Source: an uncultured Alphaproteobacteria bacterium | Lineage (GTDB): Bacteria; Pseudomonadota; Alphaproteobacteria; Bin95 | DNA length: 37,511 nucleotides | NCBI GenBank assembly: GCA_938083135.1 | Contig: CALLKY010000069.1 | Coordinates: 1-37,511, forward strand | Direction: 5' to 3' | Part shown: one piece after another, positions 3,716-37,511 of the stretch | Layout of the letters: every line of letters starts with the position of its first letter | Position numbering within the stretch: the first letter of the stretch is position 1 | Translations under genes and position numbers: made by a program | The notes under the pieces: model-generated | Told to the model about the DNA's origin: nothing | What the model saw: only the letters and a program-made list of their open reading frames with translations | The model's database searches: none

Positions 3716-3771
3716 TCTAGGCCTATTCCTCCGCCCAATCTTCAAATTTCTGCCGAAGGACGCCCGCTGCC

Positions 3772-4479: not shown

Positions 4480-4490
4480 GTCGTATCAAA

Positions 4491-5045
4491 ATGTCCCTGC
4501 TTCCGGAAAATCGGGTGTCTCGCCAGCGGTTCGTGCTGGGCGTGATTGCGATGGTCGTGCTGATCGCGGCCTCCAATGTGTTGGTCCAGCATCCAATCAA
4601 TGATTGGTTGACCTGGGGCGCGCTCACATATCCAGTCACGTTCTTGGTGACGGATCTGCTGAACCGGACGGAGGGGCCAAAAGCCGCTAATCGCGTGATC
4701 TATGTGGGCTTCGCCGTTGCTGTTGTCGCCTCAATCGCGCTTGCGACGCCAAGGATAGCGATTGCATCCGGCACGGCGTTCCTCATGGCGCAATTGCTGG
4801 ATGTGCGCGTGTTCGACCGCCTTCGTGCGGGCAGCTGGTGGAAAGCGCCGTTGGTCTCCTCCACCATCGCGTCTGGGGTGGATACGGTGCTGTTCTTCTC
4901 CATCGCCTTTTATGGAACGCAGGTTCCCTGGCAGACGCTGCTGGTGGGTGATTTCCTGGTGAAGTTAGCGATAGCGTTTATCCTGCTTGGCCCATTCCGT
5001 ATTATGGCGCGGCAAGCGATTACTGCCGCCGGGACCGCTCGATAA
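4491..5045 (+). CDS. yhhQ: Queuosine precursor transporter (VUT/YhhQ family)
   Basis: A 184-residue integral membrane protein of the vitamin-uptake-transporter-like family (PF02592). YhhQ imports preQ0 or preQ1 for the queuosine tRNA modification. The conserved blocks are present: WGALTYPVTFLVTDLLNR, with the T-D pair in the second membrane segment, FLMAQLLDVRVFDRLR and WWKAPLVSSTIASGVDTVLF. Length and six hydrophobic segments fit. Its 3' end overlaps the convergent YdbH-type gene by 26 bases, so the two transcripts would be antisense at their tails. No queuosine biosynthesis gene or preQ1 riboswitch was recognised nearby. Confidence 0.88.
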   Translation: MSLLPENRVSRQRFVLGVIAMVVLIAASNVLVQHPINDWLTWGALTYPVTFLVTDLLNRTEGPKAANRVIYVGFAVAVVASIALATPRIAIASGTAFLMAQLLDVRVFDRLRAGSWWKAPLVSSTIASGVDTVLFFSIAFYGTQVPWQTLLVGDFLVKLAIAFILLGPFRIMARQAITAAGTAR

Positions 5046-8000
5046 GATCCTCCACATCAGGCGGTAATTGCGGCGGGGCCAGATTTTCTTGAATGATCTG
5101 GCGGATCGGCCCTTCGACCTTGATGTTGAACTCGAACGGTAGGCCGCCGTAAAGCTCAACGCTCTTGCCGGAAATCTTAATGTCGAGCCGCAAATCCTCC
5201 GCCTCAATTTCATTGATGCGGATGGAGATTTCGTCATAGGCGAAGTTGGATAAGGCTTTCACGGCAAGCCCCGTGCCTTCGTTTGCATCTTCCAGTGCTT
5301 TGTCGAGCGCGCGCGGTTTGTATTTCAGCACGCCGCCCTTAGCCCCTGTCCGCAGCAGGCCGTCATGCACGGTCAATTCGCCATTGCGGTAGCTGATCGG
5401 TATCACGCCTTCCAGCGTGCCAGTAGCACTCAACTCGCCGAACTCTGCGAACGCTAAAATGCTGGCAAGGTCGATATCAGTGACTTTCAGCACCGCTTCG
5501 AATTCTTGCGCTGTCGGATCAATCGAAAGCTTCTGGCTGGAAATGAGGCCGCCAAACAGCTCAAATCGTTCGATATCCACATCCACTTGCTTCGGCGATT
5601 TTACATCAAGCAGAAGAATGCCGTGCGTCAATGGTACGCCCACATCCAGGCGCCCAATGCGAATACGCTGCGGCCCAGTCGTTCGCGGCGGAAACAGGCT
5701 TGAGAACTCGATCTTAGCCTCTGCCTGCTCCACTGTGGCTTCGCCTGTGCGGAGTTTATCAATGGAGAGTGTCGCCGCACCCGTATGGTGCCGCATACCT
5801 TCTGGCCCCCATGCGACGCGCGCGGAGGAGGATACTTGGCCGATGGTTTCAAGCAGCAAACGATAGAGTGGTGGTGCGAAATCCTGGGGCTGCACAACGC
5901 CGGGCGCGAAGACGACGGGGCCGAGCTGAAAGCGCGCATCGCCAGCGCCGGTCCCCAGATGATGGGATCCTTCAATCGCCAATGTCGCTTTCTCTGCTGC
6001 AGCTTTAAGCGCGCCGGAGAATTTGATCACTTCCCCGTGCCCTTTCAGTCCAACCTTTAGGGAAAGTGGTGCGAAGGCTGGTTCGGCACCTGTGTGCCGG
6101 ATGCGGCCTACAGTCAGGCTGCCATTCTGGGGGGCCGATGCACCAAGCCGGACCCTGGCGTCCACGTTCTCAACAGCTAGGTCATAGGCAGGTAGAACAC
6201 CTGAAGCATCCAAAAGCGCCATATCAACGCCAGCCGGGCTTATCGCGGCAGACGCACTGCCAAGCGCCAGGGTGAATGGCGTGTTCGTATCCTCTGAATT
6301 TAGCAACGCGCGTGTTTTAAACCCGGCAAAGCTCAGGCTTAGATCGAGCCGGTTTTTGATCCTGTCATAGATAATCCGCCGTTGCCTGGCCTTAGTGAGT
6401 GTCAGGCGCACCGGGTGCAGGAATGTCAGCAAGGGGCCGGAGAAGCCCCGCACCTGAATGCGCCCGCCGGGCCTAGGGGCAATGGTTGCGCGCTCTGGCG
6501 TTAGGTTAAGCGGTCCTGAAACGTCAATGTCGGCGCTCTTAACTGCATAGCCGCCAACTTTGCCGCGCGCCTTGAGGGATAGCTTGGCGTCGGCGGAGAG
6601 TGTTTCGCCGGACCCTTTGACGTCCCGCAGTTCCACCCGCCCACTAACGACGGCTGGCCCAAACGCACCATCAACGAGGCGGAGCGTCATCTCCTGGCTG
6701 TCGAGTTCCTGCACCCGTCCAGCCGCGGTCAGCAACATCGCTGCGTCGCCTTCCAGAAAAAGCGCGATTTTGGGGTTGGAAAGACCCAGGCCAAGCTTGC
6801 CCGTGGCAGCAAACCCACCCGTGGGATCTTGGGATACGGTAATCGCTGTCCCGTTGAGCCCTGGGCCGCCCATGCGCAGAAACGCGGGATCGCGAAAGGC
6901 GCGGCGGATATCCGGCGGCAGGCCCGCCAAGATATCTGGCGATAACTGCACGCCGCTGACGATCAGGCCAGGTGAGGTCAATGTCGCACCGGTTCCTGCA
7001 AGGGCTAAGTCGATTTGCCCGCGCGCACCGCCATCTTGGATGAGGTCTCCGTAACTCAGCTTCGGGATAGCAAATTTGATTTCCGCACGCCCGCCACTCT
7101 CGCTGATCACCTGGTTTAGGGCGGCACCGGTCATCAGCGGGGTGATGGGCACATTCATGTCCATGTTGAATAGAGCCTGCCCCTCGGCCTTTAAGTCTGG
7201 CAGGAACATGGCTGCGAGGGCGGCATTGATATCGCCTTTGGCACCCATGGCGACGAAACGGCGGTCCTGGGCCATATCTGCTGTCAGGCCAATAAAGCCA
7301 AAACTGCCAACGCCATCGACGCTTAAACTGACCGCGCCATGGCTGAACTCACCCGCAATAGTGACGATATCCGCCTCTACTGCTCGGGCTTCCACGCCGG
7401 AGAGTTGCACATCTGCCTGGATGCTCGGCGGACGGCCCGGCCGAAGTTTTGTGATGATGCGCCCGCGAATATCCTGAACCGCAGTCGATCCATCGGCGGT
7501 GGCGTCTGTGTTCGTGATGATCGACACCGTATCGCTGACGCCAGCCGGGGTCATTGTGTGATCGAGCCATAAGCCAAGTTTAGCCGTGAGCTTTAGGGAC
7601 GGCTCCTCGACCGTAAGCCGTGTGCCGCCAACCGCCTGCAGCCGCTCCGGCGTATAAGTGAGCGCCAGTGCGGGGGCTGAGATATCAATGGCGCGGCCGT
7701 CTGTGTCTTCAAGATAGCTGTTCAGCTGCACTTTGAATGCGTCTGGCCCCGTGCGTGTTGCCAAAGCTTCGAATGTGCCGGACGCGTTGAGTGCGGCGGT
7801 TTCGAGCCGGATGGTACCGTCAATGATCTCAAGCTTGTCGAGGTCGGGGAGCGCGGGGAAGGTTTCCGCACCTGTCCTATTGCCTTCTGTCGTGGAAGCA
7901 GTCTCGCTGTTGCCGCCGAAATTAGGCATGCCTGCGATGCTCATTGCGCCATCAGCGTCTTCAATGATTGTCATGCTTGGCTGGACGAGGCGGAGCGCGC

Positions 8001-8298
8001 GCAATTCCCCGTTCATCAACCCGCCGGGGGAAAATGTGAGCGTCGCTGCTTCTGCGCGCGGGCCATTGTCGCCGATGCGCAGGTTCTCCAACCGAACTCG
8101 GTCGGCCTCAACCTCCGCAATATCGAACGCAATGCCGTCCAAGCCCATGAACCGCAGGCTCTGTTCTGCCGCCATTTCGGCCACGCTGATGCGGAAACGC
8201 CATGTCAGTGCTGCTGCAATCACCAGCAACACCACAAGCGCCAACAGCACATATGGCCATCGGCGGCGTCTGGTAGCTGCAGGCTGTGCGATGTTCAT
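5020..8298 (-). CDS. ydbH: YdbH-type AsmA-like envelope protein
   Basis: A 1092-residue protein with one N-terminal membrane anchor (about residues 14-34, after an arginine-rich stretch) and a long periplasmic region of repeating beta-strand pattern. The C-terminal part has the YdbH signature block: VIPISYRNGELTVHDG followed by GVLKYKP (PF11739). In Escherichia coli, YdbH belongs with TamB and YhdP to the AsmA-like proteins that form hydrophobic grooves for moving phospholipid between inner and outer membranes. There it works with YnbE and YdbL; neither partner is next to this gene. A 10-bp stem terminator lies only 17 bases upstream of the start, so the gene probably has its own promoter within or beside the end of coxM. 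The start codon is supported by AGG three bases upstream and by the membrane anchor. Confidence 0.82.
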   Translation of the reverse strand: MNIAQPAATRRRRWPYVLLALVVLLVIAAALTWRFRISVAEMAAEQSLRFMGLDGIAFDIAEVEADRVRLENLRIGDNGPRAEAATLTFSPGGLMNGELRALRLVQPSMTIIEDADGAMSIAGMPNFGGNSETASTTEGNRTGAETFPALPDLDKLEIIDGTIRLETAALNASGTFEALATRTGPDAFKVQLNSYLEDTDGRAIDISAPALALTYTPERLQAVGGTRLTVEEPSLKLTAKLGLWLDHTMTPAGVSDTVSIITNTDATADGSTAVQDIRGRIITKLRPGRPPSIQADVQLSGVEARAVEADIVTIAGEFSHGAVSLSVDGVGSFGFIGLTADMAQDRRFVAMGAKGDINAALAAMFLPDLKAEGQALFNMDMNVPITPLMTGAALNQVISESGGRAEIKFAIPKLSYGDLIQDGGARGQIDLALAGTGATLTSPGLIVSGVQLSPDILAGLPPDIRRAFRDPAFLRMGGPGLNGTAITVSQDPTGGFAATGKLGLGLSNPKIALFLEGDAAMLLTAAGRVQELDSQEMTLRLVDGAFGPAVVSGRVELRDVKGSGETLSADAKLSLKARGKVGGYAVKSADIDVSGPLNLTPERATIAPRPGGRIQVRGFSGPLLTFLHPVRLTLTKARQRRIIYDRIKNRLDLSLSFAGFKTRALLNSEDTNTPFTLALGSASAAISPAGVDMALLDASGVLPAYDLAVENVDARVRLGASAPQNGSLTVGRIRHTGAEPAFAPLSLKVGLKGHGEVIKFSGALKAAAEKATLAIEGSHHLGTGAGDARFQLGPVVFAPGVVQPQDFAPPLYRLLLETIGQVSSSARVAWGPEGMRHHTGAATLSIDKLRTGEATVEQAEAKIEFSSLFPPRTTGPQRIRIGRLDVGVPLTHGILLLDVKSPKQVDVDIERFELFGGLISSQKLSIDPTAQEFEAVLKVTDIDLASILAFAEFGELSATGTLEGVIPISYRNGELTVHDGLLRTGAKGGVLKYKPRALDKALEDANEGTGLAVKALSNFAYDEISIRINEIEAEDLRLDIKISGKSVELYGGLPFEFNIKVEGPIRQIIQENLAPPQLPPDVEDLIERSRRQ

Positions 8299-8314
8299 CG
8301 CCTACATAAAGAGA

Positions 8315-8343
8315 GAGGCGCGGCCTTTTGCAAGCCGCGCCTC
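8315..8343 (-). terminator. Terminator after the cox operon
   Basis: Perfect 10-bp stem, GAGGCGCGGC pairing with GCCGCGCCTC, around a 9-base loop, followed on the minus strand by TCTCTTTATG. It lies between the coxM stop (8378) and the ydbH start (8298). The T tract is short and interrupted, so termination may be partial. On the plus strand it is followed by A-rich sequence and would not terminate. Confidence 0.65.
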
Positions 8344-8377
8344 AAACAATTCCGTGATTTCAATGGCGTTATGCGCC

Positions 8378-9172
8378 TCAGCCGCAGGCGGCGACTGCTC
8401 GTTTAGCCATTACGCCGATCAGGTGTGCGCGGTATTCTGCGCTGGCGTGAATGTCCTTGTTGAGGCCGTCTGCTGAAACGGAAATGCCATCGAGTGCGGA
8501 CGGGGAGAAGTTGGCGTTCAGCGCCGCTTCCATTTCCGTCGCCCGGAAAGCTGTGCCGCCAGCGCCTGTCACGGCGACACGAACGCCGTCAGCCGTCTGT
8601 GCCACGAACACGCCAACAATGGCATAGCGGGAGGCTGGGTTCGGGAACTTTGTGTAGGCGGCTTTGGTCGGTACGGGAAAATCGATCCGCGTGATGATCT
8701 CGCCTTCGTCCAGCGCGGTTTCGAACATGCCGGTGAAGAAATCATCACCTGCAATTTCACGCTTGTCGGTAACGACCGTGGCACCAAGGCCAAGGACAGC
8801 ACCTGGATAATCCGCTGCTGGATCATTATTGGCGACGGACCCGCCCATGGTGCCGCGATTCCGGACCATTGGATCACCGATGCCGGACGCAAGCACCGTC
8901 AGTGCTGGGATGGCGCCTTTGACATCGGCGGAATTGGCAACCGTGTCGTGGGTCGTCATGGAGCCGATGGAAACCTTGCCGCCTGCAACGCTAATACCCT
9001 GCAGGTCTGCCAATTGGCCAATGTCGACCACATCGCTTGGCATGGCCAGGCGTTGCTTCAGGGTTGGGATCAGCGTCATGCCGCCGGCCATTAATGTGCC
9101 GTCGTCAGCGCCTGCAACCTTGGCCGCTGCGTCTGCAACGGAACCGGCCTTCTGATAATTAAACTCATACAT
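8378..9172 (-). CDS. coxM: Molybdenum hydroxylase FAD-binding medium subunit (CoxM-like)
   Basis: A 264-residue FAD subunit of the carbon-monoxide-dehydrogenase / xanthine-dehydrogenase family. It passes electrons from the iron-sulfur subunit to the acceptor. Both FAD-binding motifs are visible: AGGMTLIPTLKQRL (near residue 28) and GTMGGSVANNDPAADYP (around residue 107), plus VRNRGTMGG. It is the last gene of a coxG-coxS-coxL-coxM order on the minus strand, 12 bases after coxL, and is followed by a terminator. The enzyme substrate is not known; see coxL for why this is form II. Confidence 0.9.
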   Translation of the reverse strand: MYEFNYQKAGSVADAAAKVAGADDGTLMAGGMTLIPTLKQRLAMPSDVVDIGQLADLQGISVAGGKVSIGSMTTHDTVANSADVKGAIPALTVLASGIGDPMVRNRGTMGGSVANNDPAADYPGAVLGLGATVVTDKREIAGDDFFTGMFETALDEGEIITRIDFPVPTKAAYTKFPNPASRYAIVGVFVAQTADGVRVAVTGAGGTAFRATEMEAALNANFSPSALDGISVSADGLNKDIHASAEYRAHLIGVMAKRAVAACG

Positions 9173-9184
9173 TCCGGGTTCTCC

Positions 9185-11548
9185 TTAAGACGCGTGCAGC
9201 GCCGCCCATACCTTTGAAGGCGTGGCGGGCATATCAATGGGTTTGGTGACGCCAGCGGCGCGCAGGGCCCCGGTGACGGCATTCATAACGGCAGCAGGCG
9301 CAGCAATCGCACCGGCTTCACCGCAGCCTTTAACGCCAAGCGGGTTGTGGGGGCAGGGGGTGACCTGCGTATCCACAGTGAAGTTCGGCAGGTTATCGGC
9401 CCGTGGCATGGCGTAATCCATGTAGGAACCAGTCACGAGCTGGCCGTCCTCATCATAGACGCAGCCTTCCAGCAGGGCTTGGCCAACGCCCTGTGCGATG
9501 CCGCCATGGACCTGGCCTTCGACAATCATCGGGTTGACGATATTGCCGAAATCATCCGCCGCCACGAAATTCGCCAAGGTGACAGTGCCGGTTTCAGGAT
9601 CAATTTCGACTTCGGCAATGTGACATCCAGCCGGGAAGGTGAAGTTGGCGGGGTCGTAGAACGCCTGCTCCTCCAGCCCTGGCTCAAGCTCATCATGGGG
9701 GAAGTTGTGGGGGACATAGGCTGTCAGCGCTACATCACCGAAGGCTACGGACTTATCCGTCCCGGCGATGGTGAACTGGCCGTCCTTGAACTCCACATCC
9801 GTATCGGATGCTTCCATCAAATGCGCTGCAATCTTTTTGGCTTTGGCTTCTACCTTGTCCAGCGCCTTAGCCAGGGCCGAGCCGCCAACCGCGAGGCTGC
9901 GAGAGCCATAGGTGCCCATACCAAACGGTATGTTGTTGGTATCGCCATGGACGACATCAACATTTTCGATGGGTACGCCAAGCCGTTCAGCGATGACCTG
10001 AGCGAACGTTGTCTCATGGCCTTGACCGTGGCTGTGAGTGCCGGTGTGCATGGTGACGGAACCGGTGGGATGGACCCGAACGTTCGCGACCTCATACAGC
10101 CCTGCCCGCGCACCGAGTGAGCCAACAACAGCGGAAGGTGCGATGCCGCACGCTTCGATATACGCTGAGAAACCAATGCCGCGAAGCTTGCCCGCTGCTT
10201 TGGACGCGGCTTGTCGCGCGGCAAAACCATCATAGTTGATGGCCTGCTTCGCCATTTCCAACGTGCCTGCGTAATTGCCGGAATCGTATTCCAGCGCTAC
10301 GGGCGTCTGGTATGGGAACGCATCTGGGGAGATGAAGTTTTTGGCGCGGAGGTCTGCTGGGTCCATGCCGATCTGGCGGGCTGCTTCTTCAACAATCCGC
10401 TCGATGACATATGTGGCTTCGGGGCGACCAGCGCCGCGATACGCATCCACGGGCACCGTGTTGGTGAACCACGCACGGACATTCGCGTAGACCAGCGGCG
10501 TTGTATATTGCCCGGCCAGCAATGTCGCATACAGATATGTCGGCACAGCAGGTGCGAAGGTGGAGAGATAGGCCCCCATATTCGCATCCGTCTGGACTTT
10601 GAGGGCCAGGAACTCGCCATCAGCGTCAAGCCCAAGCTTGGCGACCGTTTCATGGTCGCGGCCATGGGCGTCCGTCATGAACGCTTCGGAGCGGTCTGAC
10701 GTCCATTTGATCGGGCGACGCACTTTCGCGGCGGCCCAGGTCACAATGGCTTCTTCGGCATAGTGGAAGATTTTGGTGCCGAACCCGCCGCCGACATCAG
10801 GGGCAACGACGCGGAGCTTGTGCTCCGGCAAGCCCAGCACGAATGCGCCCATCAGCAAGCGAATCACATGGGGATTTTGGCTGGTGGTGAAAAGTGTGTG
10901 CTCACCCGTCGCCGTATCGTAATCGCCAATAGCCACGCGCGGTTCAATCGGGTTCGCGATCAGGCGGTTGTTGACGAGCGGCAGCTCGACCACATGGGCG
11001 GCTTTGGCCATGGCGGCGTCAATTTCCGCCTCATCGCCAAGTTCCCAGTCGTAGCATTGGTTGTTCGGCGCTTCTTCGAAAAGCTGCGCCTTGCCGGATT
11101 TGGCTGCTGTCATGTTGCCGACAGCTGGCAGCACGCCATAGTCGACCTCAACGGCTTCAGCGGCAGCGCGGGCTTGGCCCAGGGTTTCCGCAATCACGAC
11201 AGCGACAGCGTCGCCCACATAGCGGACTTTGCCTTGGGCGAGTGCGGGATGCGCTGGCTCGACCATCGGCTCCCCATCTTTGGAGTGCACTTGCCAGCCG
11301 CAGGGCAGGCCGTTCACTTCGGCGTCCAGCAAATCCTGGCCAGTAAAGATGGCAACCACACCATCCATGGCAGCAGCGGCAGATGTGTTGACGCTATTCA
11401 GTGTCGCGTGCGCGTGCGGGCTGCGCACGAATGCAGCGTAGGTCTGGCCTTGGCGGTTCAGGTCATCCGTGTAGGAGCCTTGGCCGGTGACAAAGCGGAA
11501 GTCTTCTTTGCGCCGGACTGAGGCGCCGATACCATCATCTCTAGGCAT
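9185..11548 (-). CDS. coxL: Molybdenum hydroxylase large subunit, form II CoxL-like
   Basis: A 787-residue molybdopterin-cytosine-dinucleotide subunit. Seen are GGGFGTK (residues 253-259), AYRGAGR (369-375) and GVKGCGEAG with the catalytic glutamate at about residue 744. The active-site loop decides the type: true aerobic CO dehydrogenases (form I) read AYxCSFR with the copper-binding cysteine, whereas AYRGAGR marks form II. Form II enzymes have uncertain or other substrates. The S-L-M gene order agrees with form II, since form I operons are M-S-L. The gene lies 17 bases after coxS and 12 before coxM and is surely co-transcribed. Molybdenum-cofactor genes are at 25283-26532 in the same window. 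CO oxidation should not be inferred from the name. Confidence 0.93.
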
Positions 11549-11565
11549 GTTTATATCCCCCGGCT

Positions 11566-12033
11566 CTAAGCGTTCATGGCGCGCGCGCCGGCCATAACGG
11601 CCTTCACGATGTTGTGGTAGCCGGTGCAGCGGCAGAGATTGCCTTCCAGCCAGTGCCGTACATCGGCTTCGCTGGGCGAAGGATTACGCTTGGCAAGTGC
11701 AGTGGCGCTCATAATCATGCCTGGGGTGCAGAAACCACACTGCAGGCCATGATGCTCGCGGAAGGCTTCCTGCATCGGGTGCAGCTCATCGCCATTAGCG
11801 AGGCCTTCGATGGTGGACACCTCTGCGCTATCCGCCTGGACAGCCAACATTGTGCAGCTTTTAACGGCTTCGCCATTCATATGAATGGTACATGCCCCGC
11901 ACTGCGTCGTGTCGCAGCCAACATGCGTGCCGGTCAGCCTTTGGTGTTCGCGTAGGAATTCAACAAGCAGGGTACGGCCTTCAACTTCGCCGGAAACTTG
12001 CTTGCCATTGATCGTCATTGAAACGCTCGCCAT
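11566..12033 (-). CDS. coxS: Molybdenum hydroxylase [2Fe-2S] small subunit (CoxS-like)
   Basis: A 155-residue two-cluster iron-sulfur protein carrying electrons between the molybdenum subunit and FAD subunit. The N-terminal plant-ferredoxin-type cluster is ligated by C40, C45, C48 and C60 (CDTTQCGAC then a later C). The C-terminal cluster uses C99, C102, C134 and C136 (CGFC and CRC). All eight cysteines are present. It is the first gene of the S-L-M run; a possible promoter lies at 12100-12127 and coxG lies upstream on the same strand. Confidence 0.95.
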
Positions 12034-12099
12034 GGCGCCTCTCTCCCCTTGAATGTGACCCGCAAGCTTTGCGCCACGAGTCTTTGTTCTTAGGAGAGA

Positions 12100-12127
12100 G
12101 GATTACGCCCATCAGCGGCGCGGTCAA
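12100..12127 (-). promoter_or_regulatory. Possible sigma-70-type promoter for coxSLM
   Basis: Read on the minus strand, TTGACC (plus 12122-12127) and TAATCC (plus 12100-12105) are separated by 16 bases, about 70 bases upstream of the coxS start. The -10 match is weak. A GC hairpin at about 12142-12161 precedes it and could partly end coxG transcription. Inference only. Confidence 0.35.
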
Positions 12128-12178
12128 CAAAAGAAACTTTGGCGCGCTCATTCTTGCGCGCGCAGCCCGGGCGTTTTT

Positions 12179-13060
12179 CTAGCCCATTAAGGTGAACAAC
12201 AGGATCGCCACAAGCAGGCCAATGCCGGCAACCCACATCAATCCGGGCATTCCGCCACTAGGATCGGGCCGGATCGTCGGGCGCGTCGCCTCTGCTGCAG
12301 CGTCTTCAGCAATCAAAGCTTCTGTGGATGATGTCGCTGCTTCCTGCACAGGGTCTGGTTGTTGCGCCACTGGCTGAGGCCTTGGAGCGGGATCTGCCTG
12401 GGCAGCAGTTTCAGTGACTGACGCTTCAACCCGAACAGGCGCTGGCGTTGCAGTGGCGATTGGGGCTGTGGCTGGGGCTGCGGCAGAAACTTGCACAGGC
12501 GGTGTCCACTGGGCTGCCGATTGAGCGGGTTCAGCTGGCGGCGGGCTGAATTGCTGAGGTGCGGCCGCCGCTGCTTCAACGACAGGTGCGGCCGCGCTGG
12601 AGGCGGATGCAGCGGCGCGTTCGGCTGTAATGGCCCCGAACTTCGTGAAAAAGTCATCCGCCATCTTACGCGCCGCGCCATCAATCAGCCTGGAGCCGAT
12701 TTGCGCGAGCTTACCGCCGACTGATGCGTCAACTTCATATTTCAATAATGTGGCATCTGGACCATCGGCCTCAAGCCTGACAATGGCACCGCCTTTTGCG
12801 AATCCAGCAGCACCCCCCGTACCTTCGCCAACAATTCGGTAGCTGTGCGGCGGGTTCAGGTCTTGCAACTCAACACGGCCGCCAAAGCGGGCACTAACGG
12901 GACCAACCTTCGCACGGACGCGGGCCGTGAAGGCATTTTCCCCGTCGCGTTCAAGTTCTTCACAGCCAGTGATCGCTTGCTTTAGTGCTTCGGGGTCATT
13001 CAGGGCGTCCCAAACGACCGCTTGCGGTGCTGGGATGCGCGCTTCGCCATTCATATCCAT
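12179..13060 (-). CDS. coxG: CoxG-type SRPBCC protein with C-terminal membrane anchor
   Basis: A 293-residue protein. Residues 1 to about 150 are a CoxG (PF06240) START/SRPBCC-like domain, beginning MDMNGEARIPAPQAVVWDAL and containing DASVGGKLAQIGSRLIDG. A long alanine- and proline-rich linker (about 155-255) follows, and a C-terminal hydrophobic segment (GLMWVAGIGLLVAILLF) would anchor the protein to the membrane. In Afipia (Oligotropha) carboxidovorans, CoxG helps hold CO dehydrogenase at the membrane, so a tether for the downstream hydroxylase is a reasonable inference. The start at 13060 is chosen for GAGAAGG eight bases upstream; an open frame continues 13 codons further. It is separated from coxS by 145 bases. 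Confidence 0.85.
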   Translation of the reverse strand: MDMNGEARIPAPQAVVWDALNDPEALKQAITGCEELERDGENAFTARVRAKVGPVSARFGGRVELQDLNPPHSYRIVGEGTGGAAGFAKGGAIVRLEADGPDATLLKYEVDASVGGKLAQIGSRLIDGAARKMADDFFTKFGAITAERAAASASSAAAPVVEAAAAAPQQFSPPPAEPAQSAAQWTPPVQVSAAAPATAPIATATPAPVRVEASVTETAAQADPAPRPQPVAQQPDPVQEAATSSTEALIAEDAAAEATRPTIRPDPSGGMPGLMWVAGIGLLVAILLFTLMG

Positions 13061-13336
13061 ATTGATAGCCTTCTCGAATAGTCTGTGCCGCCACCCCAAG
13101 TGCTTTAAATCGTAGGGGCTTCCGGGCTTTGTTTCAATGGCGGAAACGCGGCAGGTATATGGCGGAAGTTATGAACCGTATGTCCATGGTTTCGTTATAA
13201 GCTTGGCGGAGCGAACGAGGTTAGGCATACTCGGGCAAATAATTGGACGGTTCCCGATTTGGCGAATCATTCTTATAAGACTTAACGCAGCGGGCTTGCC
13301 GTTCGCTGCTAACGGTAATTTGGCGGGGGTTATGGC
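13061..13336. other. Divergent intergenic region between coxG and the antiporter gene
   Basis: About 276 bases, more AT-rich than the flanks. It contains a 19-base motif at 13093-13111 that recurs at 28098-28116, and a 6-bp inverted repeat (GCAGCG at 13287-13292, CGCTGC at 13304-13309) close to the antiporter start. It must hold promoters for both divergent genes, but no strong -35/-10 pair was identified. A plus-strand open frame at 13137-13355 looks non-coding. Confidence 0.4.
13093..13111 (-). repeat. 19-base promoter-region motif, copy 1
   Basis: ACCCCAAGTGCTTTAAATC on the plus strand, 33 bases upstream of the coxG start. It differs by one base from the copy at 28098-28116, which also lies in a divergent promoter region. 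Read toward coxG it is GATTTAAAGCACTTGGGGT. Function unknown; an operator or promoter element is inferred. Confidence 0.45.
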
Positions 13337-19278: not shown

Positions 19279-19884
19279 TTATGCCGCCCGCTCAATTGCA
19301 GCGCGGATAAGTTCCAGCCGGTCATTGCCGAAATACATGTCTTCGTAGTCCAGGAAGAACGTTGGGGAGCCGAATACGCCGCGCGCAATGGCTTCATCCG
19401 TAGCGCTGAAAAGCTTCTGTTTGTAGTCCTCGTCATTGATCGCAGCCAGAAACCCTTCACGGTCAAGGCCAGCGTCAGCTGCCAGATCACCCAGGAGATC
19501 CTGCTGGGAGATGTCTTTGTCGTGCAGCCAATAGGCTTCGAAGCAATTGCGGGCATAGGCGCTGATTTTGCCCTGGTCGATTGCATAGAAGCAGCCGCGC
19601 ATGGCACGCACGCTATTCACCGGGAATACGCTTGGGGAGACGATTTCCAGGCCCTCATATCGAGCCCAGTCCGCCATGTCCTTCTTATAGTAACCGTCCT
19701 TGGCCGGAATTGGGTTGTCCCGGCGCTGGTAGACGGACGGGTTTACTTTGTTGAACACGCCGCCCAGCAAAAACGGACGGAACACAAGTTCCGCCCCAAC
19801 GTCTTCCGCAAATGCCTCAATCCGGTGGAACGCAAAATAGGTCCAGGGACTTGAGACGTCGAAGAAGAATTCGAGACGGGGCAT
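19279..19884 (-). CDS. 2-hydroxychromene-2-carboxylate isomerase-like DsbA-family protein
   Basis: A 201-residue thioredoxin-fold protein of the HCCA isomerase / GST-kappa group (PF01323). The N-terminal FDVSSPWTYFAFHRIEAF contains the serine-proline-aromatic motif; the serine activates glutathione in this family. The C-terminal GVFGSPTFFLDYEDMYFGNDRL has the cis-proline loop (GSPTF) and the family-specific GNDRL ending. In naphthalene degraders the enzyme isomerises a chromene carboxylate, but many genomes carry such genes with no aromatic pathway, and none is seen here. The ATG at 19884 is preferred over an upstream TTG five codons earlier. It lies 28 bases after the quinone oxidoreductase gene, probably in the same transcript. 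Confidence 0.85.
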   Translation of the reverse strand: MPRLEFFFDVSSPWTYFAFHRIEAFAEDVGAELVFRPFLLGGVFNKVNPSVYQRRDNPIPAKDGYYKKDMADWARYEGLEIVSPSVFPVNSVRAMRGCFYAIDQGKISAYARNCFEAYWLHDKDISQQDLLGDLAADAGLDREGFLAAINDEDYKQKLFSATDEAIARGVFGSPTFFLDYEDMYFGNDRLELIRAAIERAA

Positions 19885-19912
19885 TGTGTGCGCCTTTTTC
19901 AATAGCTCGGGA

Positions 19913-20893
19913 TCAGGGAATGAGGATCGTCGAGCCTGTGGTTTTGCGGCCTTCGAGATCCCGATGCGCTTGCGGCGCTTCTTTCAGCGCGTAACGCTGG
20001 TTGATCTCAATTTTCACATCGCCATTTGTGACCATCTTGAAAAGCGCACGCGCGGATTTTTCAAGTTCCTGGCGGGTGGCTGTGTAAGCCATCAGCGACG
20101 GGCGCGTGACGTAAAGAGAGCCACGGCTTGCCAATTCACCAAGGTTGAAATCTGCAACCGGGCCAGATGAATTGCCGAAGCTGACCATCATGCCCCGTGG
20201 CTGCAGGCTGTCCAGCGACTGGGTCCAGGTGTCTTTGCCTACACTGTCAAAAACCACTGGCACGCCTTCGCCCTTGGTGAGCTTGCGCACGCGGTCTGAA
20301 ATATTTTGAGTTTTCTTGTAGTCGATGACCTGCTCATAGCCATGCTCTTTCGCGAGCTTGACCTTTTTCGGGCCGCCAGCTGTACCAATCGCATGTGCGC
20401 CAATGGCGTTCAGCCATTGACCTGCGATCAACCCAACGCCGCCAGCTGCAGCTTGGAACAGCACCCATTCGTCTTTTTTGACCTTGTAGGTGCGGTTGAT
20501 GAGGTATTCGACCGTCATACCCTTCAGCATCATTGCTGCTGCGGTTTCATCATCAACGCCTTTGGGCAGTTTGATGAGGGTTGCGGCCGGCATGATGCGG
20601 GCTTCGGAATATGCGCCAAGCGGGCCGGAGCCATAGGCAACGCGGTCCCCTTTTTTAACGTGGGTAACACCTTTGCCGACAGCTTCAACAACGCCAGCGG
20701 CTTCAAGACCAATGCCGCTTGGGAACTCAATCGGGTACAGGCCGGAGCGGTGATATGTGTCGATGTAGTTCAAGCCAATTGCCGTATGCCGGACCAGGGC
20801 TTCGCCTGCTCCCGGGTCGCCAAGTTCCTTGATACGCCACTTCATAACCGTTGGTGGGCCGGCCTTCTCAAAAACGAACGCATGCACCTGCAT
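19913..20893 (-). CDS. qor: Zinc-independent NADPH:quinone oxidoreductase (MDR family)
   Basis: A 326-residue medium-chain reductase lacking the structural and catalytic zinc cysteines of alcohol dehydrogenases. Features are NYIDTYHRSGLYP near residue 42, PSGIGLEAAGVVEAVG and the nucleotide-binding AAAGGVGLIAGQWL. This matches QorA-type quinone reductases, which reduce quinones with NADPH. It is divergent from the selenoprotein gene across a 95-base region and upstream of the glutathione-dependent isomerase-like gene, so a detoxification or redox role for the pair is plausible but inferred. Confidence 0.88.
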   Translation of the reverse strand: MQVHAFVFEKAGPPTVMKWRIKELGDPGAGEALVRHTAIGLNYIDTYHRSGLYPIEFPSGIGLEAAGVVEAVGKGVTHVKKGDRVAYGSGPLGAYSEARIMPAATLIKLPKGVDDETAAAMMLKGMTVEYLINRTYKVKKDEWVLFQAAAGGVGLIAGQWLNAIGAHAIGTAGGPKKVKLAKEHGYEQVIDYKKTQNISDRVRKLTKGEGVPVVFDSVGKDTWTQSLDSLQPRGMMVSFGNSSGPVADFNLGELASRGSLYVTRPSLMAYTATRQELEKSARALFKMVTNGDVKIEINQRYALKEAPQAHRDLEGRKTTGSTILIP

Positions 20894-20988: not shown

Positions 20989-22314
20989 ATGAATCAACGC
21001 AACGCAATAAATCCAGCCTCCCGCCAGACGCAATGGCGCTATGCTCTGGACGCATTGCAGACCTGCATTTCACGATTGGGAGCGACCAAATTGGCGCGAA
21101 TTGAAGACATGCCGGAAGGGTTGGCCAAGCATATGCGCCACCTTCCATTACCAGAGTTCCCGGAGACTCCTTACGTCTCTGGCCCGCCCGTAGCGGAGCG
21201 CCGTGTGGCGCTTGTGTCCACGGCTGGGCTTTCTATGCGCGGCGAGGCACCGTTCGGAATGGGCGGGGCGGATTACCGGGTCATTCCAGGTGATGCCGGT
21301 CCTGGCGACATTGTGATGAGCCATATTTCCGTGAACTATGATCGCACAGGGTATCAGCGCGATTGGAATGTTGTCCTGCCCTTGGACAGGCTGCGGGAAA
21401 TGGCAGTGGATGGCGCAATTGGCAGCGTTGCGGATCATCACTACAGCTTCATGGGGGCGACTGATCCGGCGGAAATGGAATCCGCTGCAAAAGATATCGC
21501 AGGCCACATGGCGGCTGAAGGCGTTGACGCCGTTCTGCTCCTGCCGGTTTGACCAAACTGCACGCGCGCCGTGAGCGCGCTTGCCCATTACTTTGAAACC
21601 GCGGGCATCCCGACAACCTTGTCGGCCCTTGTGCGCGAGCACGCCGAGGCCATGCACCCGCCGCGCGCGCTCGCTGTGCCGTTTGAACTTGGCCGCCCAC
21701 TGGGTGCGCCTGAAGATGCAGCTTTCCAGCGTCGCGTGATCACTGCAGCGCTGGCGCTACTGGAGCGGCCTAGCGGACCGATCCTGGAAGACTATCCAGA
21801 AGATGCGCCAGCAGACGGTGCTGCATCTGAAGCGGATGAAGGTTGGGCGTGTCCAGTGAGCTTCGCCCAGCCGAAAGCGGATGCGCCTAAGACACTCGCG
21901 GCGCGACTTCAGGCGGAAGTCGCGCAGATGAAACCGTGGCACGAGGCCTGGAAACGCCGGAAAGGCTTCTCCGGCATTGGTGCTGCAGGTGCGGAAGTAG
22001 AGGCGCTGGCAGATTACCTTGGCCAGTTCGCAGATGGCGCGGATGTTTCCCCGCCTGTTGCTGCCGCTCAACCGGCAGACGGCATGAAGCTGGCGATCAA
22101 TGATCTGATGACGTTCTATCAGGAGGCCGCGAATGCCCAGCCGGGTACAGCAGGCGGTATCCAGCAGATCAGCGATTGGTTCTGGACCGAAACGGTTGCG
22201 GGTGAGGTGCTGCTTGCAGCGCGAAAGGTCAGCAAGACGGGAGATGATAAGCGGGTCGCGTTTGTACTGGACCGCTTAGCACTTCCGCATATTGCGGCGG
22301 CGCATGATCGCTGA
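20989..22314 (+). CDS. GrdB/PrdB-family selenoprotein with UGA-encoded selenocysteine
   Basis: Conventional reading stops at TGA 21550-21552, but the same frame continues open to 22314. Upstream (187 residues) and downstream sequence together match the glycine/sarcosine/betaine/D-proline reductase selenoprotein B family (PF07355): MSHISVNYDRTGYQRDWNVV, then DAVLLLPV-U-PNCTRAVSAL, then REHAEAMHPPRALAVPFELG, which are the family blocks in order. Read through, the product is 441 residues with Sec at 188 and Cys at 191, a U-x-x-C redox motif. A SECIS-like hairpin follows (21561-21583). The last 200 or so residues, beyond the core domain, contain GWACPV and MKPWHEAWKRRKG. Proteobacterial relatives are not part of Clostridium-type glycine reductase operons, and their substrate is unknown to me. 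The start is the ATG at 20989 with a poor ribosome binding site. The alternative is an authentic stop with a decayed gene, less likely given the intact motifs. Confidence 0.88.
21561..21583 (+). promoter_or_regulatory. Candidate bacterial SECIS element
   Basis: The stem GCGCGC (21564-21569) pairs with GCGCGC (21575-21580) around the loop CGTGA; below a C/T mismatch the stem resumes with C-G and A-T pairs (21561-21562 with 21582-21583). The apical loop begins 17 bases after the UGA and has G as its second base. This fits the bacterial SECIS rule as I recall it: a loop about 16-37 bases after the UGA with a G in its first two positions. It lies inside the coding sequence, as expected in bacteria. 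Confidence 0.65.
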
Positions 22315-22338: not shown

Positions 22339-23358
22339 CTATCTGACCGTCACCTCAACCCGCCTGTTGCGGCGTTCAGCAACACCGTCTCCGGTTGCGA
22401 CCAGGGGCCTGGCTTCACCACGGGCGTAGATCAAGAAAGAGTCTTCCGGCACGTTGAGGCCGGAGAGTGCTGCGCGCACGGCCTCTGCCCGGGCTTCACT
22501 GAGCGTCAGGTTTGTTCGATCATCGCCGGCGCGATCTGCAAACCCTAGAATTTCTACATCTGGGGCGGGTCTGTCGAGCGCGTCAGCGGCGGCTTCTGCC
22601 AGCGTTGTGCGCGCTTCGTCCGTTAATGCTGCGGAGCCGGATGCAAAAAAGACTGTGAAAACCGCAGCAGGTTCGGGCAGCAAGGAAATTGCGCCCTTGG
22701 CGACTTTTTCGTTTTCGCGCCGGGTCAACTGAGCATCGCGTGATTCGCCGCGCTCATGCACAAATCCCGCAGCATTCGGCTTGTCGAGCAGGGTTTTCTT
22801 ACCGTCACTGCCACCAAGCTCCACCGCGCCGACATGTCCGTCAGCGCTTCGCATGACCAAGCTCCAGTCGGCATCAAGCCCAGCTTCCCGGCGTGTGCCT
22901 TTCACGGCTTCAATGAACCGGTCGCGGCACCAGGTTAAATCTGCGTCCTGGTGGCCTTCCTCCGCTTCCTCAAGCCAGCACTCAAATGCGCCATGAGCGC
23001 GTGCCAGATCCTTCGGTGCGCGAAGCTTGCCACCATCCAGCAGTGTCATCAGCTGGGCGCGGGCTGACGTTAATTCATCCACAAACTGCGGCTCGATATC
23101 ATAAGCGGTTAGTTCGTGAGGATAGATCGTGACGGCGCGGGCGGCTTCCACAGAGCGAGCAAGAAAGCGCTTCGCATCCAGATGATCATTCTGGGCCGCT
23201 TCTTTGTCCGCCATCAGCAGGAATTCCTGCTGTAACTGGGCGCGGTAAGGCTCAGGGTAAGGCGGGATCGCGTCTTGGCGTTCAATCTGCTCCTGGCTGG
23301 TGCACCCAACCAAAGCTGCCGTAGCAACCAACAGCATACAACGCATGTGAAACGTCAT
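22339..23358 (-). CDS. OmpA-family outer-membrane lipoprotein
   Basis: A 339-residue protein. The N-terminus has a lipoprotein signal (MRCMLLVATAALVGC, lipobox LVGC), so the mature protein is probably lipid-anchored in the outer membrane. The central region of about 200 residues is helical and charged with no recognised domain. The C-terminus is an OmpA domain (PF00691) that binds peptidoglycan: VFFASGSAALTDEA, then GFADRAGDDRTNLTLSEARAEAV, with the diaminopimelate-binding Asp and Arg positions present, ending RRNRRVEVTVR. The start is set at 23358, five bases after GGGGG; 23361 and an upstream 23421 start are alternatives. It follows a FecR-domain gene by 118 bases on the same strand. Confidence 0.8.
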   Translation of the reverse strand: MTFHMRCMLLVATAALVGCTSQEQIERQDAIPPYPEPYRAQLQQEFLLMADKEAAQNDHLDAKRFLARSVEAARAVTIYPHELTAYDIEPQFVDELTSARAQLMTLLDGGKLRAPKDLARAHGAFECWLEEAEEGHQDADLTWCRDRFIEAVKGTRREAGLDADWSLVMRSADGHVGAVELGGSDGKKTLLDKPNAAGFVHERGESRDAQLTRRENEKVAKGAISLLPEPAAVFTVFFASGSAALTDEARTTLAEAAADALDRPAPDVEILGFADRAGDDRTNLTLSEARAEAVRAALSGLNVPEDSFLIYARGEARPLVATGDGVAERRNRRVEVTVR

Positions 23359-23476
23359 CATAGCCCCCAAGCCTGAAACATGCGGCGCAAATTCGGACGA
23401 ATCAGCGCGCGCATTCGTCATCAGCTAGAGACTAGCCGTGATGTGTGCCCAAGCCAAAGCACACTTTCCAGGCGCA

Positions 23477-35300: not shown

Positions 35301-35322
35301 CTCGTTTACGGTGTTAAACGAG
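35301..35322 (+). promoter_or_regulatory. Inverted repeat overlapping the decarboxylase ribosome binding site
   Basis: CTCGTTTA (35301-35308), six bases, then TAAACGAG (35315-35322): a perfect 8-bp inverted repeat whose last two bases belong to the AGGAGAG ribosome binding site at 35321-35327. It could be a DNA operator or an RNA hairpin limiting translation. Confidence 0.5.
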
Positions 35323-35334
35323 GAGAGCGTCGAT

Positions 35335-37377
35335 ATGAATTCGCCGACGACAAGTGGATCGATTAGCGATTACTACAGCGCTGTACAATTGCGCCAGGAT
35401 CGGTGGAGTACACTCCGCGATACCTGTGAACAGCTTGCACGGTTTTCAGAATCGAATGCGCCTGAGGCGAAAGTCGCTAAGGCCGTGGGAAAGGCATCTG
35501 GCCTGCTCGCGGCTTTGTCTCCGATTAAAATGTACTGGGCCTTTCCGGGCCGCACGGCGTTTGAGCATTTGCGCAAGGTGCTGGACAGCAAGCAATATGA
35601 TGATCTCGCATTCTCTGTCCGCCGAATCTCCCGTGCACTGACAACGGGTGCCTATCGCCGCCGCGCCGTGCCGCTTGCCCGCAGCGATGGTGAGTTCGAA
35701 GAGTCCGATGACGATCTGCATGCTTCTATCGAGTCGCGGACGATGCAGAAACCGTATTTTGAGGTCCTGATCGTCGATCAGACGACGGACTATCAGGAAC
35801 GCTTTCAGCGCCAGAGCCTGCAGCGCCTGCGCCGGGAAGAAGACGCATTTATCTATGAAGCCGTGGTGACGCCGAGCTTGGAAGATGCGCTGATCGCGAT
35901 TCTGTTCAATCACAATATCCAGGCCGTCGTCGTCCGTCCTGGGTTGACCCTGAAATCCAAGAACCAGTTACCGGTTTTGCAACGCTATCTAACGCGCTTG
36001 CAGGGGGATGGTGTCGATGACCTGGACCCGCAGCACTATGGCCCTGAACTCTGCCGCCAGATCGCAAAGGTTCGCCCGGAATTAGACGCCTATCTGATAA
36101 CAGACAGGTCAGCAGAGGATGTCGCTGGCCTTGATCTCGGCCTTTGCCGCCGGGTTTTCTATAATCAGGAAGATTTCCTAGAGCTGCACCTGAACATTCT
36201 GCGCGGCGTTGCCGCCCGGAATAAGACACCGTTTTTCAGTGCGCTGGTGGAATATTCCAAGCAGCCGACTGGTGTCTTCCACGCTATGCCGATCAGCCGC
36301 GGCAAATCCATTACACGGTCCCACTGGATCCAGGATATGGGCGCGTTTTATGGCCCAAACATCTTCCTGGCCGAAACCTCGGCTACGTCAGGCGGGTTGG
36401 ATTCACTGCTGGAACCCCATGGGCCGATTAAGGAAGCGCAGGAGCGAGCGGCCGTCGCTTTTGGCTCCAAACAAACATTCTTCGCGACCAATGGCACATC
36501 GACCTGTAACAAAATTGTTGTGCAGGCCTTGGTCCGTCCCGGCGATATCGTGCTGGTCGACCGCCACTGCCATAAATCCCACCATTACGGGATGGTTCTG
36601 GCGGGCGCGCAAGTGGTCTATCTGGAAAGCTAAGCCTTGGATGCGTACTCCATGTACGGTGCCGTGCCGCTGTCTGAGATTAAGGAAAAGCTGCTGGCCT
36701 TGAAGGCAGAAGGCAAGCTGGACCGGGTGCGCATGCTATTGCTCACCAACTGCACGTTTGACGGCATTGTCTACAATGTTGAGCGGGTCATGGAGGAATG
36801 CCTCGCGATTAAGCGCGACCTGGTGTTCCTTTGGGATGAGGCTTGGTTCGCCTTCGCGCGCTTTGGCCCCACGTATCGCCAACGCACCGCCATGAACACA
36901 GCCAATGTGCTGCGGGATAAATTGCGCATGCCAGAGCACCGTTCCGCCTATGAGGCACAGCAGGCAGAACTTGAAGATGCGGATGACGAAACGCTTCTGA
37001 AAACCCGCTTGATCCCGCCGCCAAATGCACGGGTGCGGGCCTATGCAACGCAGTCCACCCATAAAACCCTGACATCACTGCGCCAGGGTTCGATGATCCA
37101 TGTGAATGACCAGGACTTCAAAGGCGAGGTCGAGCAGGCATTCCATGAAGCCTACATGACCCATACGTCTACTTCGCCCAACTACCAGATCATTGCGTCG
37201 CTAGATGTGGGCCGCAGGCAGGTCGAGCTCGAAGGCTTCGAGTTCGTGCAGCGCCAGGTCGAGGCTGCCATGGGCATGCGCCGGGCTATCTCCACCCATC
37301 CGCTGCTGCAAAAGTACTTCAAGGTATTGACGGCGGGCGACATGATCCCAGAGGCGTATCGCGAAAGCGGCGTCTCT
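35335..37377 (+). pseudogene. Orn/Lys/Arg decarboxylase, broken by a nonsense codon and an IS630 insertion
   Basis: A PLP-dependent decarboxylase of the Orn/Lys/Arg group (PF01276), good over about 680 codons: wing-type N-terminal domain, MPISRGKSITRSHW, VDRHCHKSHHYG, FLWDEAWFAFARFGP and the PLP lysine in QSTHKTLTSLRQGS (codon 577). Two lesions are visible. Codon 433 (36631-36633) is TAA within VVYLES-stop-ALDAYSMYGAVP, where relatives have an aromatic or similar residue; the same frame resumes at once. The 3' end is cut after about EAYRESGV at a TA dinucleotide (37377-37378), where an IS630 element begins, removing the C-terminal domain. The ATG at 35335 has AGGAGAG seven bases upstream. A sequencing error could explain the TAA, but not the insertion. 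Confidence 0.85.
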
Positions 37378-37378
37378 A

Positions 37379-37511
37379 GAGCAGATTCCCATCATTCTGG
37401 TTCATAGCCTGCAGCTGTGAAGTAGCTCCTGCAGTCGTTTGGCGTGAGGTCGTCGATGGCGTCTCGGATGGCGTCCCAGAGATCTGGGAGATTACGGGCG
37501 GCGGCTTTTCT
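37379..37511 (-). mobile_element. Left-hand end of an IS630-family insertion sequence, cut by the window edge
   Basis: Directly after the TA at 37377-37378 (within CTAG, a preferred IS630 context) begins GAGCAGATTCCCATCATTCTGG, the probable terminal repeat. It is followed by the 3' end of a transposase gene on the minus strand. The element continues beyond the window. Its orientation is the same as that of the fragment at 1-109. Confidence 0.75.
37392..37511 (-). CDS. IS630-family transposase, C-terminal fragment
   Basis: Forty codons ending in TGA (plus 37392-37394) encode RNLPDLWDAIRDAIDDLTP followed by NDCRSYFTAAGYEPE. The LWDAI...F/LTP..C..YF..AGY pattern is the standard C-terminus of IS630 transposases. 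The DDE catalytic region lies outside the window. Confidence 0.8.
   Translation of the reverse strand, partial: RKAAARNLPDLWDAIRDAIDDLTPNDCRSYFTAAGYEPE

What the first reader, a model, noticed from the sequence alone, without database searches (positions are those of the whole stretch)
20989..22314. In-frame UGA in a GrdB/PrdB-family gene reads as selenocysteine
The sequence shows a single TGA at 21550-21552 splitting one continuous reading frame. Both halves carry successive motifs of the same family, and the UGA sits in LLLPV-U-PNC, a U-x-x-C redox motif where family members carry Sec or Cys. Standard annotation would yield two truncated genes. Members in Clostridium work in glycine or proline reductase; this one stands alone beside a quinone reductase gene in an apparently aerobic alphaproteobacterium, so its substrate and electron partner are open questions.
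Basis: partly seen in the sequence, partly recalled or inferred. Interest (0 to 1): 0.88.

Follow-up and report, generated by a model that had tools for sequence, protein, structure and literature searches.

The report
Stand-alone PrdB-like selenoprotein gene
The gene almost certainly reads a UGA stop codon as the rare amino acid selenocysteine; it belongs to a known but uncharacterised ocean selenoprotein family, here in a form that carries an extra helical domain and seems to lack the partner its fermentation relatives need.

Summary
Confirmed, with corrections. The TGA at 21550-21552 lies in one continuous gene and is almost certainly selenocysteine (Sec). The genome has selA, selB, selC and selD; its five GrdB/PrdB-like copies each carry one TGA; 79 of 80 related loci have TGA at this codon. 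Three homologues have Cys, in genomes where no selA and no selB over cut-off was found. A SECIS-type hairpin follows the UGA; its stem differs by paired changes between long and short subfamilies. Corrections: the start is most likely TTG 21091, not ATG 20989 (407 aa, Sec154), and Sec-containing "PrdB" was already among the commonest selenoproteins in surface seawater in 2005 and 2008. Not found described: a fused C-terminal helical domain without a Pfam match; no PF09338 subunit in 33 class-sample carriers; the gene within 15 kb of selB in 12 of 28 TGA carriers with selB, directly beside selD in 8 of those 12; a divergent quinone reductase conserved in 13 of 14 family genomes. Likely role: a stand-alone Sec/Cys (UxxC) reductase of unknown substrate.

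The parts
21091..22314 (+). Long PrdB-like selenoprotein gene, 407 aa with read-through; most likely start TTG 21091
   Evidence: Start aligned to start codons with Shine-Dalgarno-like sites in 12 of 12 homologues inspected; closest relative has a TAG just upstream; continuous frame; family matches
20989..21090 (+).
   Evidence: In-frame TAG in L103 two codons before the aligned start; residues 1-35 have pLDDT under 50
21078..21081 (+). Probable Shine-Dalgarno GGAG before TTG 21091
   Evidence: Read from the sequence
21550..21552 (+).
   Evidence: 79 of 80 genome-contig loci TGA, 1 TAA; Cys in 3 homologues whose genomes gave no selA match and no selB over cut-off
21559..21561 (+). Conserved Cys of the UxxC motif
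   Evidence: Invariant in the 38-sequence alignment (C191)
21564..21580 (+). SECIS-type apical hairpin: six-pair stem, loop CGUGA beginning 17 nt after the UGA
   Evidence: Fold of the 42 nt after the UGA -15.4 kcal/mol; stem and loop counts over 106 unique sequences; synonymous codons constrained at Arg-Ala-Val
21184..21816 (+). Rossmann-like PrdB-type domain carrying Sec (model residues 66-276)
   Evidence: NCBIfam TIGR04483 and Pfam PF07355 matches; model mean pLDDT 87.1; fold rows span 66-276
21850..21852 (+).
   Evidence: 34 of 38 aligned sequences
21877..22311 (+). C-terminal helical domain without a Pfam match
   Evidence: Model of the domain alone, mean pLDDT 92.9; Pfam: no match for the window's domain, three single chance-level hits among 38 members
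19913..20893 (-). Divergent zinc-type NADPH:quinone oxidoreductase / MDR gene
19279..19902 (-). DSBA-like thioredoxin-fold gene directly behind the quinone reductase, same strand
   Evidence: Pfam DSBA 143 bits; conservation of this neighbour not tested
22339..23421 (-). OmpA-domain gene, convergent; no evident link
   Evidence: Pfam OmpA

Best explanation
A single selenoprotein gene. The mRNA hairpin just after the UGA, with SelB and tRNA-Sec, inserts Sec at residue 154; comparative genomics supports this strongly (I put Sec decoding at about 0.97), though there is no direct proof. The product is a stand-alone PrdB-like enzyme. The selenolate is the nucleophile; Cys157 of the UxxC motif resolves it as a selenenylsulfide, which cellular thiols (thioredoxin-type, perhaps through the linker Cys254) re-reduce (inferred). 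Unlike glycine or D-proline reductase, it appears to work without the pyruvoyl subunit that polarises amino substrates, so it probably attacks a small electrophile that needs no Schiff base (inferred). The C-terminal helical domain takes the place of a partner or shapes the site (inferred).
For: Sec machinery: selC (67 bits; ARAGORN tRNA-SeC, anticodon tca), selB 451.8 bits, selD 289.4 bits, selA 531.5 bits next to selB. Five paralogues with exactly one TGA each. In 14 family genomes, 42 of 45 match rows carry one TGA; the other three are fragments that do not reach the codon. Class sample of 385: 33 of 36 long copies TGA; selB over cut-off in 28 of 30 TGA genomes against 26 of the 355 others, p about 2e-25 with kinship ignored. 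Three Cys copies, in genomes with no selA match and no selB over cut-off, form one clade inside the Sec forms. SECIS pairing and synonymous constraint. PF09338 has no match in the 33 class-sample carriers, while the same search rings in 6 of 40 other carriers, where the hit fetched does not overlap the long-gene locus (6 of 6). UxxC invariant in 38 of 38.
Against: No protein-level evidence. PF09338 may not catch every PrdA-type partner, and no PrdA-specific model was run; one of the six carriers with PF09338 (L120) is itself titled Alphaproteobacteria, so the class is not free of it. G275 has a TGA copy but neither selA nor selB over cut-off was found; the copy sits on a 5,967-base contig and may be mis-binned. 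The selB search scored only three candidates per genome, and the Cys genome G149 is 83% complete. Stem pair 14-26 is broken in 37 of 95 unique long forms, and sliding the pairing by two columns still pairs 62-70% of cells, because the long-form stem is GC-alternating. One TGA copy (G047) has a further TAG in its downstream half. The thiol mechanism and the type of substrate are inference.
Confidence: 0.56

Rival explanations
1. It is a true amino-acid (D-proline-, glycine- or betaine-like) reductase whose carbonyl-bearing partner is encoded elsewhere by a divergent gene not recognised by PF09338.
For: The Sec domain aligns to PrdB across positions 26-219 of 238. Paralogues lie beside genes of amide or hydantoin metabolism: HyuA and HyuB directly upstream of the short copy on C97, an amidase beside the second long copy on C33.
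Against: PF09338 has no match in the 33 class-sample carriers and in 34 of 40 others; GrdE-like proteins from the six positive genomes find nothing at E <= 1e-8 in the 80 long-form loci, of which 33 exceed 14 kb; the equivalog cut-off for PrdB is missed by a wide margin.
Confidence: 0.17
2. It cleaves a carbon-heteroatom bond (reductive dehalogenation or similar) by direct selenolate attack, as proposed for the GrdB-like FarB acting on fluoroacetate in Synergistota.
For: FarB precedent: an operon with a GrdB-like Sec protein is strongly induced by fluoroacetate, with which no Schiff base can form (PMC10838667, passages read). In 8 of 80 loci a HTH protein lies beside the long gene; the one scanned has a MEDS (DcmR sensory) domain, DcmR being, from recall, the regulator of dichloromethane dehalogenase.
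Against: FarB has a GrdE-like partner, FarE; the HTH neighbour was seen only in desulfobacterial-type loci; no dehalogenase gene was recognised among the neighbours scanned.
Confidence: 0.13
3. It serves selenium metabolism itself, for example as a selenium carrier or redox partner of SelD, rather than an independent pathway.
For: Within 15 kb of selB in 12 of the 28 class-sample genomes with a TGA copy and selB over cut-off. In 9 of these 12 islands a selD over the TIGR00476 cut-off is present, and in 8 it is the direct neighbour, under about 150 bases away.
Against: Not linked to sel genes in this genome, where selD is on C35 and selAB on C138; of 54 class genomes with selB over cut-off only 28 have a TGA long copy; Cys forms persist in three genomes without detected selA or selB; in the 80-locus set only 2 have selA and selB and 4 have selD nearby.
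Confidence: 0.12
4. The TGA is a true stop or an assembly error, and two truncated products (or a pseudogene) result.
For: A GTG-started ORF of 247 aa begins at 21571. The window holds another in-frame stop, a TAA at 36631-36633 in a decarboxylase gene, so errors or decay do occur.
Against: TGA kept in 79 of 80 loci and in all five paralogues; the residues between the UGA and that GTG are conserved as protein; Cys is found only in genomes where selA and selB were not detected.
Confidence: 0.02

Closest known systems
PrdB selenoproteins of the Sargasso Sea and GOS surveys (PMC1088965, PMC2398784)
   Same: Same named family and UxxC motif; Sec or Cys at the site; marine (42 genes in 2005; 235 Sec and 110 Cys in 2008; passages read).
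   Different: The surveys' sequences were not compared here, so whether they are the long or the short form is unknown; the passages read do not mention a fused helical domain, lack of the pyruvoyl subunit, or linkage to selABD.
PrdB of D-proline reductase (Clostridium; NCBIfam TIGR04483)
   Same: UxxC motif; profile match across positions 26-219 of 238.
   Different: Cut-off 300 missed (100.6 bits); no PF09338 family member found in the genome; extra C-terminal domain of about 145 residues.
GrdB of glycine reductase (Pfam PF07355; NCBIfam TIGR01917 and TIGR01918)
   Same: PF07355 over cut-off (40.6 bits against 22) in the stretch leading to Sec.
   Different: Only profile positions 275-344 of 347 match in Pfam; TIGR01917 and TIGR01918 cut-offs missed.
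FarB, GrdB-like fluoroacetate reductase component (PMC10838667)
   Same: Sec protein of the GrdB group proposed to attack carbon without a Schiff base (passages).
   Different: Has a GrdE-like partner and an operon with an antiporter and a radical SAM protein; no sequence comparison made here.

Membership tests
Bacterial selenoprotein | Sec machinery (selA, selB, selC, selD) in the genome | tested here: met
Bacterial selenoprotein | In-frame UGA conserved in orthologues, replaced by Cys in others | tested here: met
   TGA 79 of 80; Cys in 3 class-sample genomes
Bacterial selenoprotein | SECIS hairpin directly downstream, with G in the first two loop bases (rule recalled) | tested here: met
   Loop CGUGA or similar beginning 17 nt after the UGA; six pairs
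Bacterial selenoprotein | Selenium shown in the protein | not testable with these tools
   Needs 75Se labelling or mass spectrometry
PrdB of D-proline reductase (TIGR04483 equivalog) | Profile score over the curated cut-off of 300 bits | tested here: not met
   100.6 bits
PrdB of D-proline reductase (TIGR04483 equivalog) | UxxC redox motif | tested here: met
PrdB of D-proline reductase (TIGR04483 equivalog) | Partner subunit PrdA with pyruvoyl group | tested here: inconclusive
   PF09338: no match in 33 of 33 class-sample carriers; a PrdA-specific model was not run
GrdB (PF07355) | Score over Pfam's gathering cut-off | tested here: met
   40.6 bits against 22, profile positions 275-344 of 347 only
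GrdB / selenoprotein B subfamily (TIGR01918) | Score over the curated cut-off of 65.45 bits | tested here: not met
   57.7 bits
GrdB of glycine reductase | GrdE subunit (PF09338) in the genome | tested here: not met
   No match in G000 and in 32 other carriers; the same search rings in 6 of 40 other genomes
GrdB of glycine reductase | GrdA and GrdCD in the genome | not tested
   No search made

The most novel reading that the evidence does not exclude
The long form is a separate selenoenzyme family that has left amino-acid reductase chemistry: a pyruvoyl-independent Sec enzyme fused to a new helical domain, spread from sulfate reducers to aerobic Alphaproteobacteria, Actinomycetota and Chloroflexota, often carried beside selD and selAB, and in some aerobic lineages the client that keeps the whole selenocysteine trait.
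Probability: 0.3. Interest if true: 0.75.

Novelty: new variant of a known kind. Interest (0 to 1): 0.5.

Why it matters
Two surveys place PrdB among the commonest ocean selenoproteins, yet the passages I read take its function from the clostridial enzyme. If most marine members lack the pyruvoyl partner, that name is misleading, and a common selenium-dependent reaction of surface waters is unknown. Mechanical ORF calling splits the gene in two, so it is easily missed. Cys homologues in genomes without detected selA and selB, and five Sec paralogues in one genome, give a natural system to ask why selenium is kept in a cell that uses oxygen.

Tried and rejected
Pseudogene or sequencing error: rejected. 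Second gene starting at GTG 21571: rejected, because the residues before it are conserved as protein and no ribosome site is evident to the eye. Start at ATG 20989: rejected.

Structure by sequence: no PDB sequence matches the 38-row profile at E <= 1. Fold searches of the whole model gave a generic Rossmann-like arrangement (best Foldseek E 2.4e-3, photocobilins; best VIA Z 8.3, 142 residues at 3.6 A, an allulose transcriptional regulator). The C-terminal domain alone gave no Foldseek match under E 3.5 and best VIA Z 4.4 (98 residues at 5.2 A, 14-3-3); this does not show that the fold is new. Pfam on 38 C-terminal domains: three single chance-level hits.

Universal partner gene: not found. 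The quinone reductase occurs in 10 of the 80 loci, all ten being contigs of this same family's genomes. By tblastn with four TauD queries, TauD genes lie directly behind two of three Cys forms and beside two short Sec paralogues, but directly beside none of the 80 long-form loci; the nearest are about 1 kb upstream in L109 and L120. sel genes near the 80 loci: selA 2, selB 2, selD 4; only 33 loci exceed 14 kb.

Literature: five answered searches; no listed title or abstract start describes a stand-alone long form, but the listings were capped and the library holds open-licence papers only. Passages were read in PMC1088965, PMC2398784, PMC13188914, PMC5322559, PMC8124441 and PMC10838667; all other papers were seen as listings only.

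The selD adjacency made me raise the selenium-metabolism rival from 0.08 to 0.12 and lower the best explanation from 0.6 to 0.56.

Full report
Observation. The frame 20989-22314 is open except for TGA 21550-21552, and its true stop is also TGA. Pfam GRDB matches residues 116-184 over its cut-off; NCBIfam PrdB (TIGR04483) matches residues 67-259, across the UGA, at 100.6 bits, under its equivalog cut-off of 300; TIGR01918 scores 57.7 against 65.45. I looked at the region before the UGA in 12 of the 80 homologous loci. A start codon lies exactly 153 codons before the UGA in all 12: ATG in 10, TTG in the two closest (L103, L104), behind a GGAG-like purine stretch. In the window this codon is TTG 21091, preceded by GGAG; the closest relative, L103, has a TAG two codons upstream. 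I take the gene as 21091-22314, 407 aa, Sec154.

Sec machinery. The window's genome (4.15 Mb, 163 contigs, 99.99% complete by its table) holds tRNA-Sec (67 bits; ARAGORN tRNA-SeC with anticodon tca), selB (451.8 bits), selD (289.4 bits) and selA (531.5 bits, directly before selB).

Paralogues. A search of the genome with the protein finds five copies at E <= 1, each with exactly one TGA: this one, a second long copy on C33 (46% identity) and three short copies on C97, C99 and C106 (31-35%). The TGA sits in the same motif in all five. The two long copies fall in different clades, so the second does not look like a recent duplicate. In 14 genomes of the family, 42 of 45 match rows carry one TGA; the remaining three are fragments that do not cover the codon.

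Wider conservation. In 385 genomes of the class, 33 have a long copy at E <= 1e-30: 36 copies, 33 with TGA in 30 genomes; one of these, in G047, has a further TAG in its downstream half. The three others have Cys (TGC, TGT, TGT) at the codon, and their genomes give no selA match and no selB over cut-off (that search scored three candidates per genome, and one of the three genomes is 83% complete). selB is over cut-off in 54 of the 385 genomes and in 28 of the 30 TGA carriers (Fisher p about 2e-25, kinship ignored). Of the two TGA carriers left, G348 has selA and a selB fragment at a contig end; G275 has neither, its TGA copy being on a 5,967-base contig. A scan of named genomes with patterns lying before the codon returned the best 80 of 570 relatives in a capped list: 79 have TGA and one, a degraded Geobacteraceae copy (L144), has TAA. 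The 80 sequences are all different; 14 are contigs already met. The titles include Alphaproteobacteria, Gammaproteobacteria, Betaproteobacteria, sulfate reducers, Geobacter, Acidimicrobiaceae and Dehalococcoidia. In a quick tree of 109 rows the three Cys forms make one clade (support 100) inside the Sec forms.

SECIS. A hairpin begins 11 nt after the UGA: six pairs and loop CGUGA, starting 17 nt after the UGA. Over 106 unique sequences (95 long, 11 short; 134 before removing identical ones), the six pairs form in 93% of cells; slides of one or three columns give 14-33%, slides of two give 62-70%, because the long-form stem is GC-alternating. The short-form stem is not repetitive, pairs in all 11, and differs from the long-form stem by changes on both sides of several pairs, with the loop kept. 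Pair 14-26 is a G-G mismatch in 37 of 95 long forms. Synonymous choice is constrained: Arg CGC 73 of 75, Ala GCC 69 of 77, Val GTG 60 of 77, against 0.36, 0.42 and 0.36 elsewhere in the same genes (p-values there ignore kinship). The three Cys forms break two, one and four of the six pairs and differ in the loop, by one base in G155.

What the protein is. AlphaFold gives a confident model (mean pLDDT 87.1): a Rossmann-like domain (66-276) carrying Sec and a C-terminal helical domain, the latter confident on its own (92.9), with no Pfam match of note and no close solved fold found. In an alignment of 37 of 75 full-length relatives plus the window protein, U188 and C191 are invariant; C288 in a GWACP linker motif is kept in 34 of 38.

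Partner subunit. PF09338, the pyruvoyl-bearing B subunits as I recall, has no match at E <= 1e-5 in the 33 class-sample carriers; none of the 14 control genomes rings, but the same search in 40 carriers taken from the 80 loci rings in six. One of the six (L120) is titled Alphaproteobacteria, so the class is not free of the family. In all six the fetched hit does not overlap the long-form locus, and GrdE-like proteins from these six find nothing at E <= 1e-8 in the 80 loci, many of which are short. PrdA was not searched with a model of its own.

Neighbours. The divergent quinone reductase is at the same place in 12 other genomes of the family (two genera, 62-99% identity), is not seen in the fetched flanks of both long copies of G009 or of the second long copies L028 and L046, and among the 80 loci occurs in ten, all of them this family's own contigs. 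It is thus a conserved local partner, not a universal one. In 12 of the 28 class genomes with a TGA copy and selB over cut-off, the two lie 216 to 14,096 bases apart (expected within 15 kb by chance: 0.2 of 28), in seven families, four of the twelve in one family. Nine of these twelve islands hold a selD over its cut-off, and in eight it is the direct neighbour, under about 150 bases away. In 8 of 80 loci, desulfobacterial-type, a HTH protein lies on the same strand, six downstream and two about 1.1 kb upstream; the one scanned has a MEDS domain.

Interpretation. Sec decoding is as well supported as sequence can make it. The function is not. The best reading is a stand-alone UxxC selenoenzyme: selenolate attack, resolution by the neighbouring Cys, reduction by thiols. 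The missing PF09338 family argues against classical amino-acid reduction. FarB (PMC10838667, passages) is a GrdB-like Sec protein proposed to attack carbon without a Schiff base, though it has a GrdE-like partner. The selD adjacency keeps a role in selenium metabolism open. An oxygen-using setting is supported by a P450 and TauD-type dioxygenase genes beside the paralogues.

Prior art. Sargasso Sea 2005 lists 42 Sec-containing PrdB genes with UxxC (PMC1088965); GOS 2008 lists 235 Sec and 110 Cys (PMC2398784); a 2026 review, in the passages read, describes the family through the clostridial enzyme (PMC13188914). The gene-context survey PMC5322559 picked YedE, YedF, LysR and DUF3343 as selenium genes; its passages do not name this family. 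So the kind is known; the form, the lack of partner and the sel linkage are what I did not find described in five answered searches, seen as listings.

Noticed in passing
L013 (G000:C97) 3200-8200: A short Sec paralogue lies directly behind HyuA and HyuB (hydantoinase/oxoprolinase) genes, with a cytochrome P450 gene convergent. Its motif is U-x-x-D, lacking the resolving Cys.
   Followed up: partly
L014 (G000:C106) 2489-4177; L102 (G000:C99) 6622-10801: Two short Sec paralogues sit beside TauD-family dioxygenase genes, the second also near CoA-transferase and PhyH genes. In L188 and L190, Cys long forms are followed at once by TauD.
   Followed up: partly
window 36631-36633: In-frame TAA splits an Orn/Lys/Arg decarboxylase gene (35311-37407) into two ORFs of one frame: decay or an assembly error.
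   Followed up: no
L115 5059-5790 and seven other loci of the 80: A HTH protein beside the long selenoprotein gene, same strand, in desulfobacterial-type loci; the one scanned (L115) has HTH_17 and MEDS (DcmR sensory) domains.
   Followed up: partly
L023 (G000:C35) 328-2514: The genome's selD is the second half of a 728-residue fusion with a pyridine nucleotide-disulfide oxidoreductase-type domain (NCBIfam TIGR03169), as in seven of nine selD genes scanned from relatives.
   Followed up: partly
window 8378-13099, minus strand: Molybdenum hydroxylase genes of the aerobic CO dehydrogenase type (FAD, molybdopterin and 2Fe-2S subunit domains) with a CoxG-like gene.
   Followed up: no
L080 / L191 (G275:C98): A TGA long copy on a 5,967-base contig of a genome in which no selA and no selB over cut-off was found: mis-binning or a stranded selenoprotein gene.
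   Followed up: partly
L144 (Geobacteraceae) 8421-8423: TAA in place of TGA in a copy with further stops: probably a decayed gene.
   Followed up: no
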